Shown here piece after piece: positions 29,620-36,281 of a DNA stretch of 64,000 bases. Below the pieces are notes generated by a model. It did no database searches, was not told the origin of the DNA, and saw nothing but the letters and a program-made list of their open reading frames with translations. The DNA is from Candidatus Nitrotoga sp. BS (lineage in GTDB: Bacteria > Pseudomonadota > Gammaproteobacteria > Burkholderiales > Gallionellaceae). The position numbers and the translations under genes were made by a program. Position 1 is the first letter of the stretch. The number at the start of each line of letters is the position of its first letter. The stretch is from assembly GCF_927797785.1 (NCBI RefSeq), contig NZ_CAKMLL010000068.1, positions 1 through 64,000 of the forward strand, given 5' to 3'.

Positions 29620-30291
29620 ATGATGATGATTGAGCGTGGAGCGAAAAGAACCGCAAAGCCTGATATTTTTATCAGTCATTCTTCTAAAGATAAAAAGGCG
29701 GCACTTCATTTGGCTAAAGTACTCAATTTTTGTTCTATAGATGTATGGTTAGACGATTGGGAACTTGAGGTAGGACAAAGCCTTACAGATGAAATCTCTA
29801 AGGCCATGAATGAATCTCGATATATAGCAATATTGATTACTGAAAACTACAACAAAACTGTATGGACAAAAACAGAATATAAAAAGGCCTTGTCCAGAGA
29901 GCAAAAAGAACAACGCACAGTAATGCTCCCACTCATAATTGGTGAAGCGGTTATACCCGACTTCCTTGAAGATAAGATGTATATTGATCTTAGAGCCAAG
30001 TTTTTTAATGGCGTTGTTAATCTAGTTGGCATGATTCACAGTATATCTAGATTCAGAATCTCTGAGGCTTTGAACGATTCAGAGCCTGAGAATGTTGGCG
30101 ATATTTGGAGGCTTCTTCAGTCAATAGGTTTCGAACCGTATGTCGTACTTGGTAATGATGACTTTCAAGAAATGCTTAAGCACGGTGGTCATTTAATAAA
30201 AGAAGATTATGCGACATTTGATCCATTCGAACTCAAGAATAGTGGCAAAGTATCTAATCATGTTAAGGCGCTGATTGGCGAACTGATTTGA
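29620..30291 (+). CDS. TIR-domain protein, probable NADase defence effector
   Basis: 223 residues, preceded by AAGGAGATATTGAACA. Residues 14-130 form a TIR domain: PDIFISHSSKDKKAALHLAKVL, VWLDDWELEVGQSL, and VWTKTEYKKAL, where Glu86 is in the position of the NAD-cleaving glutamate. The C-terminal 80 residues (from ISRFRISEALNDSEPENVGDIW) match nothing I recognise and may be a sensor. Bacterial TIR proteins often act in anti-phage abortive infection. It sits alone between RAYT copies with no partner gene, so function is inferred from the domain only. Confidence 0.8.
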   Translation: MMMIERGAKRTAKPDIFISHSSKDKKAALHLAKVLNFCSIDVWLDDWELEVGQSLTDEISKAMNESRYIAILITENYNKTVWTKTEYKKALSREQKEQRTVMLPLIIGEAVIPDFLEDKMYIDLRAKFFNGVVNLVGMIHSISRFRISEALNDSEPENVGDIWRLLQSIGFEPYVVLGNDDFQEMLKHGGHLIKEDYATFDPFELKNSGKVSNHVKALIGELI

Positions 30292-30353
30292 AAGTATTAA
30301 CAAATATCGAGCCTAACGAATAAGGTTAGGTTGGAACGCACGGGTAGAGCCAT

Positions 30354-30988
30354 GTAGGGTGGGCACGTTTTTGTGCCCACGCGGATTCGTCATTTTGGAG
30401 TAAACAGCAATGACACGTTATCGCCGCGTAATGGCTGCAGGCTCAAGCTATTTCTTTACGGTGGTCGCTTACCGGCGGCAGTCAATTTTATGTGATGAAG
30501 CGATTCGTAACGCACTACGTGCCTCAATCGAAACGGTGAGCGTGGCGCGTCCTTTCGTCATCGATGCATGGGTATTGTTGCCTGACCATTTACATTGCGT
30601 GTGGACATTACCTGACGGTGATGCCGATTTTCCACTCGTTGGATGATGATCAAGCGAGCGGTTTCTTTGGCCTGCAGAGAAGAGCATCGTCGTGCCGACT
30701 GGGTGACTGCATCAAAACTCAAACATCGCGAATCGACTATCTGGCAACGGAGATTCTGGGAACACCAAATTCGTGATGAAAATGATTTTGCCCGTCATGT
30801 CGATTACATTCATTTCAACCCGGTTAAACACGGGCATGTACAACGTGCGATTGATTGGCCTCATTCGACATTTCACCGCTATGTGCATGATGGGGTATAT
30901 GCGCATGACTGTTCTGATTCGATGAGAAATGGGGTGTTAGGGTCTGATTGACTCAGACCGCGTGGGCACAAAGACGTGCCCACCCTAC
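30354..30988 (+). mobile_element. REP-RAYT-REP element, family 2, copy with frameshift
   Basis: Bounded by inverted REPs: the left begins GTAGGGTGGGCACG (30354-30384) and the right begins CCGCGTGGGCAC and ends CCCACCCTAC (30958-30988). The two are reverse complements apart from one or two bases. The RAYT gene between them is broken (see next entry). Confidence 0.85.
30410..30951 (+). pseudogene. Frameshifted RAYT transposase
   Basis: Encodes MTRYRRVMAAGSSYFF... with the HUH motif LPDHLHCVW, then loses frame in GATGCCGATTTTCC. The sister copy at 31.5 kb has five T where this copy has four (30628-30631). The second half resumes one frame over from 30643 and carries the Tyr motif HVDYIHFNPVKHGHV to the stop at 30951. 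A single-base loss in a homopolymer explains everything. A sequencing error is the alternative. Confidence 0.85.
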
Positions 30989-31093
30989 TTGACTGCTCAG
31001 AAGTTTGCCGTCCCTCAGTTTTATTGCGCTTCAAAATAACTGCTTTAACTGTAACCTTATAAACTAGCCTTTTTCAACTTTGAGAGCGAGATT

Positions 31094-31495
31094 ATGAATG
31101 ACGACAAGCGGCTCGAACGACTGTACGACTACACGAAGTGGCACATTGGTATTTACCTGTCTGTAGCAGGAGCGCTGACTGCCGCCGTCGGTTATCTTGC
31201 CGAGGAGAACAAAACCCGGAATCTAGCGCCATATGTTGGCAGCCCGAAATTGCTGCTCGCTGCAGTAATCTTTATGTTTCTAGCTGGGGTCTGCGGGGCG
31301 GTCATCGCAAGCTCCAGCACTGAATGCAAAACGTATGACGAACTTTGGCTTTGCAAGCAAGGGCCATACGGACTTCGCCTTATGCCGGGTAGAGTCTGGG
31401 CAATGTTTGAGCATAGTTTCTTCTGGCTCAGCTCGGCCTGTATCGCTCTGTCTGTGCTGACGGCAGAGCCGGTCTTAAAGTGGCTCGCAAAATAA
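31094..31495 (+). CDS. Small membrane protein of unknown function
   Basis: 133 residues with three predicted membrane helices: GIYLSVAGALTAAVGYLA, LLLAAVIFMFLAGVCGAVIA and FFWLSSACIALSVL. The N-terminus is charged (MNDDKRLERLYDYTKWH). I recognise no family. It sits between two RAYT copies and may be accessory cargo; the GAGAGCGAGATT before its ATG is a plausible ribosome site. Confidence 0.6.
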   Translation: MNDDKRLERLYDYTKWHIGIYLSVAGALTAAVGYLAEENKTRNLAPYVGSPKLLLAAVIFMFLAGVCGAVIASSSTECKTYDELWLCKQGPYGLRLMPGRVWAMFEHSFFWLSSACIALSVLTAEPVLKWLAK

Positions 31496-31503
31496 ACAGC
31501 CAT

Positions 31504-32006
31504 GTAGGGTGGGCACGTTTTTGTGCCCACGCGGATTCGTCATTTTGGAGTAGACACTATGTCACGTTATCGCCGCGCAATGGCTGCAGGCTCAAGCTAT
31601 TTCTTTACGGTGGTCGCTTATCGGCGCCAGTCGATTCTATGTGACGAAGTGATTCGTAACGCATTGCGCACCTCAATCGAAACGGTGCGTGTGGCGCGTC
31701 CTTTCGTCATTAATGCATGGGTATTGTTGCCTGATCATTTACATTGCGTGAGGACATTACCTGACGGTGATGCCGATTTTTCCACCCGTTGGATGATGAT
31801 CAAGCGCGCGGTTTCTTTGACCTGCAGAGCAGATTATCGTCGTGCCGACTGGGTGACTACATCAAAACTCAAACATCGCGAATCGACTATCTGGCAACGG
31901 CGATTCTGGGAACACCAAATTCGTGATGAAAATGATTTTGCCCGCCATGTCGATTACATACATTTCAACCCAGCTGCCCGCGTGGACACAAAGACGTGCC
32001 CACCCT
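31504..32006 (+). mobile_element. REP-RAYT element, family 2, 3'-truncated copy
   Basis: Left REP at 31504-31534, then the RAYT gene. The right REP starts prematurely: after codons for HFNP the sequence jumps to GCTGCCCGCGTGGACAC and runs to CACCCT at 32006, where the IS110 element begins. The jump removes about 40 C-terminal codons compared with the 30.4-kb copy. Confidence 0.8.
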
Positions 32007-32032
32007 TGTATCTTTCTTCCCGTGGTGGTTAG
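31559..32032 (+). pseudogene. C-terminally truncated RAYT transposase
   Basis: MSRYRRAMAAGSSYFF... with HUH motif LPDHLHCV and the Tyr region HVDYIHFNP present in one frame. The natural C-terminus (WPHSTFHRYV...) is replaced by AARVDTKTCPP read from the REP and LYLSSRGG read from the IS110 end. The catalytic residues survive, but the lost WPHS segment probably makes it inactive. Confidence 0.8.
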
Positions 32033-32044
32033 CTACCATTACAC

Positions 32045-32185
32045 GAAGCAGAGGAAGCTTGAGCCCACCCTTAAGGCTCGACCTTGTCATGTAGATCAAG
32101 CCCTCTGCTTCACCTTTCGCCAGCATAGACACTGAACGGTATCCAAGGGGTGAACCCTGCATGCACAAGGCAAGTGGGCGAAGTT
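32045..32185 (+). ncRNA. Putative IS110 bridge RNA
   Basis: The long left end contains, in the order known for bridge RNAs: GCCCACCCT (32063-32071), identical to the REP left of the insertion; GTAG (32091-32094), complementary to core plus right target CTAC; ACGGTATC (32136-32143), identical to the element's right end at 33207-33214; and ACAAG (32165-32169), complementary to core plus left end CTTGT. These would be the left/right target and donor guides. The first guide sits in the loop of a GAGCC/GGCTC hairpin. RNA ends are approximate. Confidence 0.6.
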
Positions 32186-32211
32186 GGCTAACATTGAAAC
32201 AGGAGGTCATC

Positions 32212-33198
32212 ATGTTCTATCTCGGTATGGATGTGGCAAAAGCCAAATTAGATTGTTGCCTGTTGCTGGATGAGGCCAGTAGCAAGCGCAAGACTAAAGT
32301 AGTGAAAAACACCCAGTCAGGCATCATTGATTTGCTGGCTTGGGTTGCCAAACAAAACGTATCCCCGGAAGCTTTGCATATCGTCATGGAAGCCACCGGC
32401 ATCTATCACGAACATGCTGCCATGGCGCTCGCGGATGCTGGTGTGATGGTTTCCATCATCAATCCGGCGCAGGTTAAAGATTTTGGCCGTGGGCTGGCCG
32501 TGCGCACCAAGACCGATGGCGTGGACAGCGTTGTGCTGGCTCGTTATGGCGCATTACTCAAACCCAAAGCTTGGGTGCCGCCTACACCGGAAGCACGGGT
32601 ATTGCAAGCGTTGTTAGTACGCCGTGAGGCGCTTGTCCAAGATTTACATCGTGAGCGTAATCGCCAGGAGAAAGCCGTTGCCACAGACACGCCAGCGCTG
32701 ATTCATAAATCACTTGAAGAGGGCATTGCATTTCTGGCCAAGCAGTTAGATCAGATACAAAAGGATATTGACGCACATATCGACAAGCATGCGGATCTTC
32801 AGAAAGATAGGGCATTGCTCCAGAGTATTCCAGCAGTTGGTCCACAGGTGGGGAGCAATTTACTCTCTGTGATGCACAACCATGATTTTGGTTCGGCTGA
32901 ACAGTTGGCGGCTTATCTGGGACTCGTTCCGGTGGAACGAAAGTCGGGTAGTTCGGTGCTGGGTCGCGCGCGTATGTCCAAGGCCGGTCCCGCCAGAATA
33001 CGTGCCGTGTTATATATGGCTGCCGTCGTGGGGACACGCTGCAACCCACACGTCAAAGCTGTTTATGAACGCCTAGTTGCTCGAGGCAAGTCCAAGATGT
33101 CTTCCCTCGGTGCCGCAATGCGTAAGTTGGTACATTTGTGCTTTGGCGTACTCAAAACTCAACAGCCATATCAACACAATTATCTGAAAAATGCTTGA
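32212..33198 (+). CDS. IS110-family transposase (DEDD recombinase)
   Basis: 328 residues from the ATG at 32212, preceded by AGGAGG. The N-terminal DEDD RuvC-like domain shows LGMDVAKAKLDCCLL (first Asp), IVMEATGIYHEHAAMAL (Glu) and RTKTDGVDSVVLARYG (Asp pair). The C-terminal transposase_20 domain shows LLQSIPAVGPQVGSNLLSVM, AAYLGLVPVERKSGSS and RIRAVLYMAAVVGTRCNP, including the conserved serine region. The frame is complete, so the element may be active. Confidence 0.93.
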   Translation: MFYLGMDVAKAKLDCCLLLDEASSKRKTKVVKNTQSGIIDLLAWVAKQNVSPEALHIVMEATGIYHEHAAMALADAGVMVSIINPAQVKDFGRGLAVRTKTDGVDSVVLARYGALLKPKAWVPPTPEARVLQALLVRREALVQDLHRERNRQEKAVATDTPALIHKSLEEGIAFLAKQLDQIQKDIDAHIDKHADLQKDRALLQSIPAVGPQVGSNLLSVMHNHDFGSAEQLAAYLGLVPVERKSGSSVLGRARMSKAGPARIRAVLYMAAVVGTRCNPHVKAVYERLVARGKSKMSSLGAAMRKLVHLCFGVLKTQQPYQHNYLKNA

Positions 33199-33336
33199 CT
33201 TTAAAGACGGTATCTACTTGGCTCTTCCGCCGTGGCATCAAGCGATACGGCCGGCATCTGCAATAGTCCTGATAATGCATGAACCTCTCCAGAATATCTC
33301 TGATCCATAAATTGTCAGATTTTCCACTTTCCAGCA

Positions 33337-33365
33337 CTTGAAATTTTATGTTCGTGTCCACAGAT
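33337..33365 (+). promoter_or_regulatory. Sigma-32 (heat-shock) type promoter of the hsp20 pair
   Basis: CTTGAAA (33337-33343), a perfect -35 for RpoH, then 14 bases, then CCACAGAT (33358-33365), which matches CCCCATNT at five positions. It lies 50 bp before the first Hsp20 gene. Confidence 0.55.
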
Positions 33366-33414
33366 TGAGGGGTATGGCAATCCTGCCAGCATTTACCCGT
33401 TGAAAGGAGACATC

Positions 33415-33834
33415 ATGCATTATCGAGGTATTTTTCCCCGCGATCTGTTCGCGGAACTGGAGCGGTTGCAGCGTGATTTTGACGGCTCCCCCAGCATTCG
33501 CGGTGCAGCGCCAGGCTATCCGGCCATGAACGTTGGCACAACACCGAAGTCGGTTGAGGTCTATGCCTTTGCGCCCGGCATGACACCGGAGGAATTCGAT
33601 GTGCAAGTCGAGAATGGCGTGCTGACCATCAGTGGCGAGCGCAAAGACATAGTGGCACCTGAGGGAGCGACCATACATATTGGCGAACATTTCTCCGGGC
33701 GTTTCCGACGTGTCGTATCGCTGCCGGACGACATCGAGCCGAATTCGACAACGGCCAGTTATCGCGATGGCGTGCTACACGTCTGCGTGGCGCGCAGGGA
33801 AGCTGCCCAATCGCGCCGGATTTCGGTTCAATGA
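33415..33834 (+). CDS. Small heat-shock protein, Hsp20/alpha-crystallin family (first of pair)
   Basis: 139 residues from the ATG at 33415 with GAAAGGAGA before it. The alpha-crystallin domain covers roughly residues 40-135: VEVYAFAPGMTPEEFDVQVENGVLTISGER and FSGRFRRVVSLPDDIEPNSTTASYRDGVLHVCVAR. Such proteins hold unfolding proteins in soluble complexes. The conserved A-x-x-x-n-G-V-L motif appears as ASYRDGVL. The next Hsp20 gene follows after 14 bp; two classes in tandem may form hetero-oligomers. Confidence 0.92.
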   Translation: MHYRGIFPRDLFAELERLQRDFDGSPSIRGAAPGYPAMNVGTTPKSVEVYAFAPGMTPEEFDVQVENGVLTISGERKDIVAPEGATIHIGEHFSGRFRRVVSLPDDIEPNSTTASYRDGVLHVCVARREAAQSRRISVQ

Positions 33835-33848
33835 GAAAGGAGAACACC

Positions 33849-34223
33849 ATGAGCGAGAAAGTTATCAAGCGTGAAAATGCGAGTGAAGAGAGTGCAGCCA
33901 TGCGCCCTGCAGTGAACGTAGTTGAAGATGCGACCGGCATCACACTGTATGCCGATCTACCTGGAGTGCCAAAAGAAAAGTTGTCCATCCATGTGGAAGG
34001 CGACAATCTGATTCTGGAAGGCGAGCTGGAAATAAATTCCCCGCCGAACATGGAGGCGATCCACGCTGAAGTCGACCTGTCGCGTTACCGCCGGGTATTC
34101 GGCCTGTCGCGGGAACTGGATGGCAACAAGGTATCGGCAGGATTCCGACATGGCGTGCTGGAATTGCGCATTCCGAAAGCCGAGCATGCACAGCCGCGCC
34201 GGATCGTAGTGCAGGCTACCTGA
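33849..34223 (+). CDS. Small heat-shock protein, Hsp20/alpha-crystallin family (second of pair)
   Basis: 124 residues from the ATG at 33849 (MSEKVIKREN). An in-frame ATG at 33831 overlaps the previous stop, but the ribosome site AAAGGAGAA lies between the two ATGs and fits the second. The alpha-crystallin domain shows ITLYADLPGVPKEKLSIHVEGDNLILEGEL and YRRVFGLSRELDGNKVSAGFRHGVLELRIPK. Shorter N-terminal arm than its neighbour. Confidence 0.92.
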   Translation: MSEKVIKRENASEESAAMRPAVNVVEDATGITLYADLPGVPKEKLSIHVEGDNLILEGELEINSPPNMEAIHAEVDLSRYRRVFGLSRELDGNKVSAGFRHGVLELRIPKAEHAQPRRIVVQAT

Positions 34224-34323
34224 TCTCATCACCCGGCGGTGGATTTACTCCACTGCCGGATATAGATAAGAGGTTCATCATGCAAATTGAAAGAAATTAA
34301 GAGAACATGGGGGCTGTTAATAA

Positions 34324-34491
34324 TGTAGGGTGGGCAGGTTTTTGCCTCGTAGAGGTTCTCGCACCCGGAGGGTGTGCCCACGCGGATTCTGGGAACACCA
34401 AATTCGTGATGAAAATGATTTTGCCCGTCATGTCGATTACATTCATTTCAACCCAGCTGCCCGCGTGGGCACAAAATCGTGCCCACCCTAC
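34324..34491 (+). mobile_element. 168-bp non-autonomous REP element derived from family-2 RAYT
   Basis: Left REP (with ~28 bp of extra sequence in its loop) joins at CGCGGATT to codons for WEHQIRDENDFARHVDYIHFNP, then jumps at CAACCCA to GCTGCCCGCGTGGGCAC and the right REP ending at 34491. The 5' junction equals that of the 36.0-kb element; the 3' junction equals that of the 31.5-kb copy. Confidence 0.8.
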
Positions 34492-34494
34492 TTG

Positions 34495-34686
34495 GCTACT
34501 TGGCTGGCGCTGGTGGCCGAGCAGTCTGTCGGCAACCGCCCCGGACGAATCGAGCCAAGGGCAATCAAGCGACGCCATAAACCATATCAGCTACTGACAA
34601 AAACAAGGGATTTGGCAAGGGAGCAATTGATCAAATATAGGTATCCGAAAAAACTTAAGGGCTGGCCTCGTAATCATGCATTTTGA
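34495..34686 (+). pseudogene. C-terminal fragment of an IS4-type transposase
   Basis: Reads in frame as GNRPGRIEPRAIKRRHKPY, then LLTKTRDLAREQLIK and a stop. The RPxRxEPRAxKRRPKPYxLLT pattern is the usual C-terminus of a large IS4-family transposase group. Nothing of its catalytic domain remains; it begins right after the REP element at 34491. Confidence 0.7.
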
Positions 34687-34827
34687 GCGAAGTTTGATGG
34701 AGCGCTCTGCTAACAATGGAATAATGCACCCATAAGTATTCGCCGCCTTCTTTGACCCCTTCGCCTCTGTCTCAAGAGCTTGACAGCTTTGCTATACTTA
34801 AATTTTCATAAGCATAAGGCAACGAGT

Positions 34828-35232
34828 ATGAAAACAGACGAACAGCTAAAGAAAGACAATCCTGAGCTATACAGAGTTGCTCGACAAGGAGGTACGGAAC
34901 CATCAGGCTCCAGTGACTTATTGCATGCAGACAAAGAAGGTGTGTTTCGCTGTGCAGTATGCAATGCAGCACTTTTTAGTGGAGACACAAAGTTTGAGTC
35001 AGGTACAGGATGGCCGTCATTCACTGATCCGGTAAGTAAAGATGCAGTCAAGCTTATCAGCGATGACAGCCACGGTATGCGCCGCACTGAAGTACAGTGT
35101 GCGGGCTGCAAAGCACACCTCGGACATGTTTTTCCAGACGGACCAGACCGCAAAAAAGATGGCGAGCAAGACTTTGGTCGACACGATCGCTACTGTATCA
35201 ACGGTATTTGTCTTGACCACAAAACTACATAG
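34828..35232 (+). CDS. msrB: Peptide-methionine (R)-S-oxide reductase
   Basis: Repairs R-methionine sulfoxide in proteins. 134 residues from the ATG at 34828. Zinc is held by CAVCNAALF and CAGCKAHLGHVF; FESGTGWPSFTDP and RTEVQC are family signatures; the catalytic Cys is in HDRYCINGICL. That motif is usually RYCINSASL, so the Ser-to-Gly change beside the catalytic site is slightly atypical, though seen in some members. msrA follows after 26 bp. Confidence 0.94.
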   Translation: MKTDEQLKKDNPELYRVARQGGTEPSGSSDLLHADKEGVFRCAVCNAALFSGDTKFESGTGWPSFTDPVSKDAVKLISDDSHGMRRTEVQCAGCKAHLGHVFPDGPDRKKDGEQDFGRHDRYCINGICLDHKTT

Positions 35233-35942: not shown

Positions 35943-36014
35943 TTGATTTAATCTGCCACCTCACGTTTCGATCTGCCACGCGACAGAGGCATTGCCCGAC
36001 GCTCCGTAAGTAAG

Positions 36015-36281
36015 GTAGGGTGGGCAGGTTTTTATGCCCACGCGGATTATGGGAACACCAAATTCGTGATGAAAATGATTTTGCCCGCCATGTCGATTAC
36101 ATCCATTTCAACCCGGTTAAACACGGGCATGGTAATCGTGCGGTTGATTGGCCTCATTCGACATTTCACCGCTATGTGCGTGATGGGGTATATGCGCATG
36201 ACTTGTCTGATTCGATGGAACGCGCGGTGCTGGGATATGATTGACGCTGCCCGCGTGGGCACAAAGACGTGCCCACCCTAC
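36015..36281 (+). mobile_element. 267-bp non-autonomous REP element derived from family-2 RAYT
   Basis: Left REP 36015-36045 joins at CGCGGATT to the RAYT 3' third (GNTKFVMK region; the natural frame reads HQIRDENDFARHVDYIHFNPVKHGHG and WPHSTFHRYV) down to the natural stop, then the right REP 36246-36281. The 5' two thirds of the gene, including the HUH motif, are deleted. Confidence 0.8.

What the first reader, a model, noticed from the sequence alone, without database searches (positions are those of the whole stretch)
32005..33215. IS110 element targeted to a RAYT-associated REP, with a readable bridge-RNA guide set
Seen directly: the element interrupts a REP between CACCCT and ACTTGGCT; both junctions carry CT; the 205-bp left end contains GCCCACCCT (same as the left target), GTAG (complement of core plus right target), ACGGTATC (same as the right element end) and ACAAG (complement of core plus left element end), in target-then-donor order. 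Known: IS621, an IS110-group element of E. coli, inserts in REPs with a CT core under control of a bridge RNA. Inferred: this is an independent bridge-RNA system aimed at a different REP family, one spread by local RAYTs.
Basis: partly seen in the sequence, partly recalled or inferred. Interest (0 to 1): 0.8.

Follow-up and report, generated by a model that had tools for sequence, protein, structure and literature searches.

The report
IS621-like bridge-RNA element in Nitrotoga REP
This is a complete jumping gene of the IS110 (IS621-like) family in the nitrite-oxidising bacterium Candidatus Nitrotoga, whose predicted guide RNA spells out the repeat sequence it landed in; it is a well-supported new example of a recently discovered RNA-guided system, not a new kind of system.

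Summary
Positions 32007-33213 are an intact IS110-family element with CT cores at 32005-32006 and 33214-33215 and a 328-aa recombinase carrying all IS621 catalytic residues. It sits in a REP at the 3' end of a RAYT gene copy. An uninterrupted paralogue of that site lies at 34385-34497. The left end folds as an IS621-type bridge RNA: 5' stem-loop, target loop, donor loop. GCCCACCCU occupies the left-target-guide slot exactly, with GUAG, ACGGUAUC and AU/CAAG in the other three. Across 20 related elements the left guide matches each element's own left flank at 122 of 140 non-core positions (58.7 expected, p about 5e-6). The other three guides show compensatory changes in outgroups. A covariance model built here from these elements recovers IS621's own left end. 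So the RNA-guided reading is strongly supported in silico; no RNA or transposition was observed. Only the left guide is retargeted. IS110 elements in different hosts' REPs have been known since 2006. New member of a known kind. One mildly new point: the nearly constant right guide GUAG equals the GTAG tag of REPs that RAYTs cleave.

The parts
32007..33213 (+). IS110-family (IS621-like) insertion element, left end TGTATC... to right end ...ACGGTAT
   Evidence: Ends conserved in full copies in other Nitrotoga genomes; empty paralogous site
32005..32006 (+). CT core dinucleotide, left junction
   Evidence: Sequence; the same CT at nearly all copies
33214..33215 (+). CT core dinucleotide, right junction
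   Evidence: Sequence
32212..33198 (+). DEDD/serine recombinase (328 aa); D7, E60, D102, D105, S245, G246 align to IS621 D11, E60, D102, D105, S241, G242
   Evidence: Pfam PF01548 + PF02371; NF033542; 8wt6 E=3.7e-58; residue alignment
32020..32203 (+). Predicted bridge RNA stretch modelled here (about 177 nt expected by analogy to IS621)
   Evidence: Fold z=-2.4; consensus fold and covariation; covariance model recovers the IS621 left end
32022..32042 (+). 5' stem-loop of the predicted bridge RNA
32045..32111 (+). Target-binding loop with its closing stem (outer stem has 4 pairs with compensatory changes)
32063..32071 (+). Left target guide GCCCACCCT, identical to the left target 31998-32006
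   Evidence: natural covariation over 20 elements
32088..32094 (+). Right target guide GTAG (32091-32094), extended form CATGTAG, complement of core + right target
32119..32180 (+). Donor-binding loop with its closing stem
32136..32143 (+). Left donor guide ACGGTATC, identical to the right element end plus first core base
   Evidence: compensated in L099
32161..32169 (+). Right donor guide AT-(GCA)-CAAG, same split pattern as IS621 A157-U158/C162-G165
   Evidence: compensated in L093
33193..33213 (+). Right-end part of a predicted junction promoter: TTGACT (-35) overlapping the stop codon; in the circle it lies 17 nt from TATCTT in the left end
   Evidence: sequence only, no expression data
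31981..32006 (+). Left part of the interrupted REP (CGTGGACACAAAGACGTGCCCACCCT)
33216..33223 (+). Right part of the interrupted REP (ACTTGGCT)
31559..31999 (+). RAYT gene copy (N-terminal 131 of 146 model positions) whose downstream REP was hit
   Evidence: NF047646

Best explanation
This is an autonomous IS621-like IS110 element. When it excises as a circle, the right and left ends join (TTGACT-17 nt-TATCTT) and should recreate a promoter that transcribes a roughly 177-nt bridge RNA from the left end. The target loop of that RNA reads GCCCACC-CT (left) and, through GUAG, CT-AC (right), and so selects the foot of the local REP. The donor loop reads the element's own joined ends (ACGGTATCT / CTTG.AT). 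The DEDD/serine recombinase then joins target and donor at the CT core, top strand first. Shown here: the anatomy, the empty site, the fold with covariation, guide-target covariation between lineages, and intact catalytic residues. Inferred from IS621: transcription, circle formation and chemistry.
For: Domains, catalytic residues and solved homologue. Empty paralogous site at 34385-34497. Identical ends in full copies. MFE fold leaves exactly GCCCACCCU and the GUAG segment unpaired on opposite sides of the target loop. Consensus fold over 17 sequences: 98% of cells paired, 10 pairs with double-sided change versus 2.9 in shuffles and 2-5 in slid controls. Model R1 recovers IS621's left end at 34 bits, E=5e-9. 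Left guide versus own left flank, 20 lineages: 122/140 versus 58.7 expected, p about 5e-6; with 15 distinct guides only, 90/105 versus 39.6. Extended right guide p=0.002. Compensatory switches: L099 right target CTCA with guide TGAG and right end ACGGTTAC with donor guide ACGGTTAC; L093 left end TATATC with TAAG and right target CTAT with ATAG. Junction promoter spacing of 17 nt in six elements spanning the clade.
Against: No RNA-seq, circle junction or transposition was observed. Within Nitrotoga alone the guide-flank association is not significant (74/84 versus 71.0, p=0.055), because guides there differ at only one position, and some copies sit at the other guide's site (L015, L029). A few elements match poorly (L024 3/7, L020 4/7). 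The donor loop is the less certain part of the single-sequence fold. Guide tables were read by eye from aligned slots.
Confidence: 0.94

Rival explanations
1. An IS110 element inserted by protein-read specificity for REP hairpins; the matching segments in the left end are coincidence or captured target sequence.
For: Half of the insertion sites sit at a stem of score 7 or more, versus 8% of control CCTAC/CTTAC sites, so hairpins are clearly enriched.
Against: Several targets with well-matched guides have no hairpin (L044, L048, L091). The guide follows the flank across unrelated targets such as TTCGCACCT, TTGCCACCT, CCGCATCCT and GTCTGCGCT. Right and donor guides are compensated too.
Confidence: 0.03
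2. The element is immobile: the structure is a conserved relic, and this copy no longer moves.
For: Only one full-length copy in this assembly, and many decayed relatives in the genus.
Against: Open reading frame intact with all catalytic residues; ends and fold intact; perfect left-guide match to the site it occupies; full copies at different sites in other species of the genus.
Confidence: 0.15
3. An IS1111-type element with seekRNA downstream of the recombinase gene, rather than an IS110/IS621-type element.
For: ISPa11, an IS1111-type element, also targets REPs (PMC11187229).
Against: The non-coding stretch is upstream of the gene (205 bp) with only 15 bp downstream, and the RNA matches the IS621 layout.
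Confidence: 0.01

Closest known systems
IS621 (E. coli, IS110 family; bridge RNA, PMC11208160, PMC11208158)
   Same: DEDD + serine recombinase of similar size with all catalytic residues; CT core; right target AC with guide GUAG; donor ends ACRGTATCT/TGTAT; RNA layout of 5' stem-loop, target loop, donor loop; split right-donor guide; junction promoter; REP target
   Different: 39.5% protein identity; left target guide GCCCACCCU instead of AUCGGGCCU; the REP belongs to a Nitrotoga family; left-end sequence strongly diverged (34 bits to the model)
ISPpu9, ISPpu10 (Pseudomonas putida; IS110 family, REP-specific; PMC1525189, PMC8450116)
   Same: IS110-family elements inserted at one fixed position inside the host's own REP family
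   Different: Different host and REP; not compared by sequence here; ISPpu9 leaves an AG repeat and has two described small RNAs
ISPa11 (P. aeruginosa; IS1111 type, seekRNA; PMC11187229)
   Same: RNA-guided DEDD recombinase aimed at a REP
   Different: Guide RNA downstream of the gene, subterminal inverted repeats, IS1111 branch

Membership tests
[quoted passage not shown]
   residues D7, E60, D102, D105, S245
IS110 family, IS621-like branch | Gene length 315-330 aa, non-coding stretch upstream, short right end, no terminal inverted repeats | tested here: met
   328 aa, 205 bp upstream, 15 bp downstream; ends TGTATC / GGTAT are not inverted repeats
IS110 family, IS621-like branch | Insertion at a CT core, with the core present at both junctions and once in the empty site | tested here: met
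IS110 bridge RNA | Two internal loops, target then donor, with left and right guides on opposite sides of each loop | tested here: met
   the donor loop is less certain in the single-sequence fold
IS110 bridge RNA | Guides match the element's own target and donor, and covary with them among relatives | tested here: met
IS110 bridge RNA | Match to an Rfam family | tested here: inconclusive
   No relevant Rfam match; a self-built model recovers IS621
IS110 bridge RNA | RNA is expressed from the circle junction and binds the recombinase | not testable with these tools
   Only the promoter-like sequence was checked
REP of the GTAG class | Short palindrome ending in GTAG at one end, flanking a RAYT gene | tested here: met
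   ccatGTAGGGTGGGCAC...GTGCCCAC at 31500-31531 and 30350-30381; RAYT by NF047646

The most novel reading that the evidence does not exclude
A clade of IS110 elements has specialised as REP hunters by a division of labour in its guide. The nearly constant half (core plus GUAG) reads the GTAG tag of REPs that RAYTs recognise and cleave, while the variable half (left guide) drifts base by base to follow each host's REP stem. The element is then a parasite of a parasite, competing with RAYT for the same four bases.
Probability: 0.4. Interest if true: 0.5.

Novelty: new member of a known kind. Interest (0 to 1): 0.4.

Why it matters
It gives a bridge-RNA system about 40% identical to IS621 with all four guide segments readable and naturally reprogrammed among close relatives. 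That is useful for studying how guides change in evolution and for choosing orthologues for genome engineering. It also suggests why REPs are recurrent targets: the right guide plus core equals the REP tag, so only the left guide has to change when the element enters a new host.

Tried and rejected
Rfam scan of 30000-35000: nothing relevant. Viral contigs: no relative. No held paper combines GTAG, IS621 and REP, and none found describes Nitrotoga IS110 elements. Chance matching of the motifs was rejected by shuffles and by covariation. An IS1111-type assignment was rejected because the non-coding region is upstream. The within-genus guide test was not significant (p=0.055) and is not used as support. 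L076 and L077 were left out of the covariation test because the guide slot is ambiguous. Protein structure prediction was not run: solved IS621 structures with matching residues made it unnecessary.

Full report
Setting. The window lies on contig 68 of a 3.1-Mb genome whose close relatives are Candidatus Nitrotoga. Position 32007-33213 is a 1,207-bp element flanked on both sides by CT.

Observation. The two flanks joined without the element align without a gap, 108 of 113 positions, through the junction to 34385-34497. That second RAYT-end/REP copy is uninterrupted and acts as the empty site. Nearly identical ends occur in copies of 92-93% identity in four other Nitrotoga genomes.

Protein. 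The 328-aa product carries both IS110 domains and matches NCBIfam 'IS110 family RNA-guided transposase'. It aligns to the solved IS621 recombinase (39.5% identity), with all residues that PMC11208158 reports as essential conserved.

RNA. The left end folds into a 5' stem-loop, a long-stemmed target loop and a donor loop. The nine unpaired bases on the 5' side of the target loop are exactly GCCCACCCU, and GUAG lies unpaired on the 3' side. Over 17 related left ends the structure keeps 98% of cells paired. Ten pairs change on both sides, against 2.9 in shuffles and 2-5 in slid controls. A covariance model of these sequences finds the left end of IS621 from an E. coli plasmid record (34 bits, E about 5e-9) and of Arsenophonus and other relatives.

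Guide-target covariation. I read the left-guide slot and the left flank in 20 lineages, IS621 included as a positive control. They agree at 122 of 140 non-core positions, against 58.7 when guides are shuffled among elements (p about 5e-6); restricted to 15 distinct guides, 90 of 105 against 39.6. Examples are TTCGCACCT/TTCGCACCT (L042), TTGCCACCT/TTGCCACCT (L093), CCGCATCCT/CCGCATCCT (L096) and GTCTGCGCT/GCCTGCGCT (L044). The three bases beyond CTAC also follow the extended right guide (21/45 against 12.1, p=0.002). In outgroups the other guides change together with their partners. L099 has right target CTCA with guide TGAG, and right end ACGGTTAC with donor guide ACGGTTAC. L093 has left end TATATC with TAAG in place of CAAG, and right target CTAT with ATAG. 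Within Nitrotoga alone the test is not significant (p=0.055), because guides there differ only at GCCCA[C/A]CCT and elements tolerate that mismatch.

REPs. Half of the insertion sites sit at the foot of a palindrome scoring 7 or more, against 8% of control CCTAC/CTTAC sites. The REP hit here, CGTGGGCACAAA-CGTGCCCACCCTAC, flanks the RAYT copies in inverted orientation (30356 minus, 30961 plus; 31506 minus, 31981 plus) and occurs at 12 sites within two mismatches in the genome, 5 of them in this window. REPs characteristically end in GTAG, and RAYT cleaves that motif (PMC3733652). The core plus right target CTAC is its complement, so the element's nearly constant right guide reads the REP tag and the left guide reads the stem. 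I found no held paper stating this. It is an inference: some non-REP targets also carry CTAC, so the constancy may instead be ancestral.

Promoter. Joining the ends gives TTGACT-17-TATCTT, and the 17-nt spacing is the same in six elements examined. This matches the junction promoter described for IS621 (PMC11208160). No expression was tested.

Verdict. The RNA-guided reading is about as strong as sequence can make it. IS621 established the mechanism, and Tobes and Pareja 2006 (PMC1525189) established that IS110 elements hit the REPs of different hosts. This is therefore a new member of a known kind with a retargeted left guide, homologous to IS621 rather than independent of it.

Noticed in passing
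Relatives of the element in Nitrotoga and Gallionellaceae genomes, e.g. L002, L021, L025, L031, L040: Decayed copies are one-sided: 20 interior remnants keep the right end and lack the left, against 2 the other way round (contig-edge matches excluded; p about 1e-4). Left breakpoints look random. Unexplained; a deletion bias from the REP hairpin beside the left end, or selection against the guide-bearing end, are guesses.
   Followed up: partly
window 30410-30951, 31559-31999, 34363-34482, 35960-36160: Several RAYT copies within 6 kb, flanked by the same REPs: one frameshifted near 30632, two sharing a deletion of about 130 bp that fuses the RAYT coding end to the REP. The genome has 19 RAYT-family matches, although RAYTs are usually single-copy (own knowledge). 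This suggests local multiplication of a RAYT-REP unit.
   Followed up: partly
window 29620-30291: A TIR-domain protein gene (TIR_2, E=5e-25) lies between REPs upstream of the RAYT copies; possibly a defence or signalling gene.
   Followed up: no
L013 and L030 (G005 contig 1, 295262-298335): Two near-complete copies of the element in tandem, about 660 bp apart, each in a REP of a second family (GTTGGGCT...AGCCCAACCTAC); L013's guide is GCCCAACCT.
   Followed up: partly
window 33193-33198: The stop codon of the recombinase gene overlaps the -35 hexamer of the predicted junction promoter (GCTTGACT), so the gene end and the promoter share bases.
   Followed up: no
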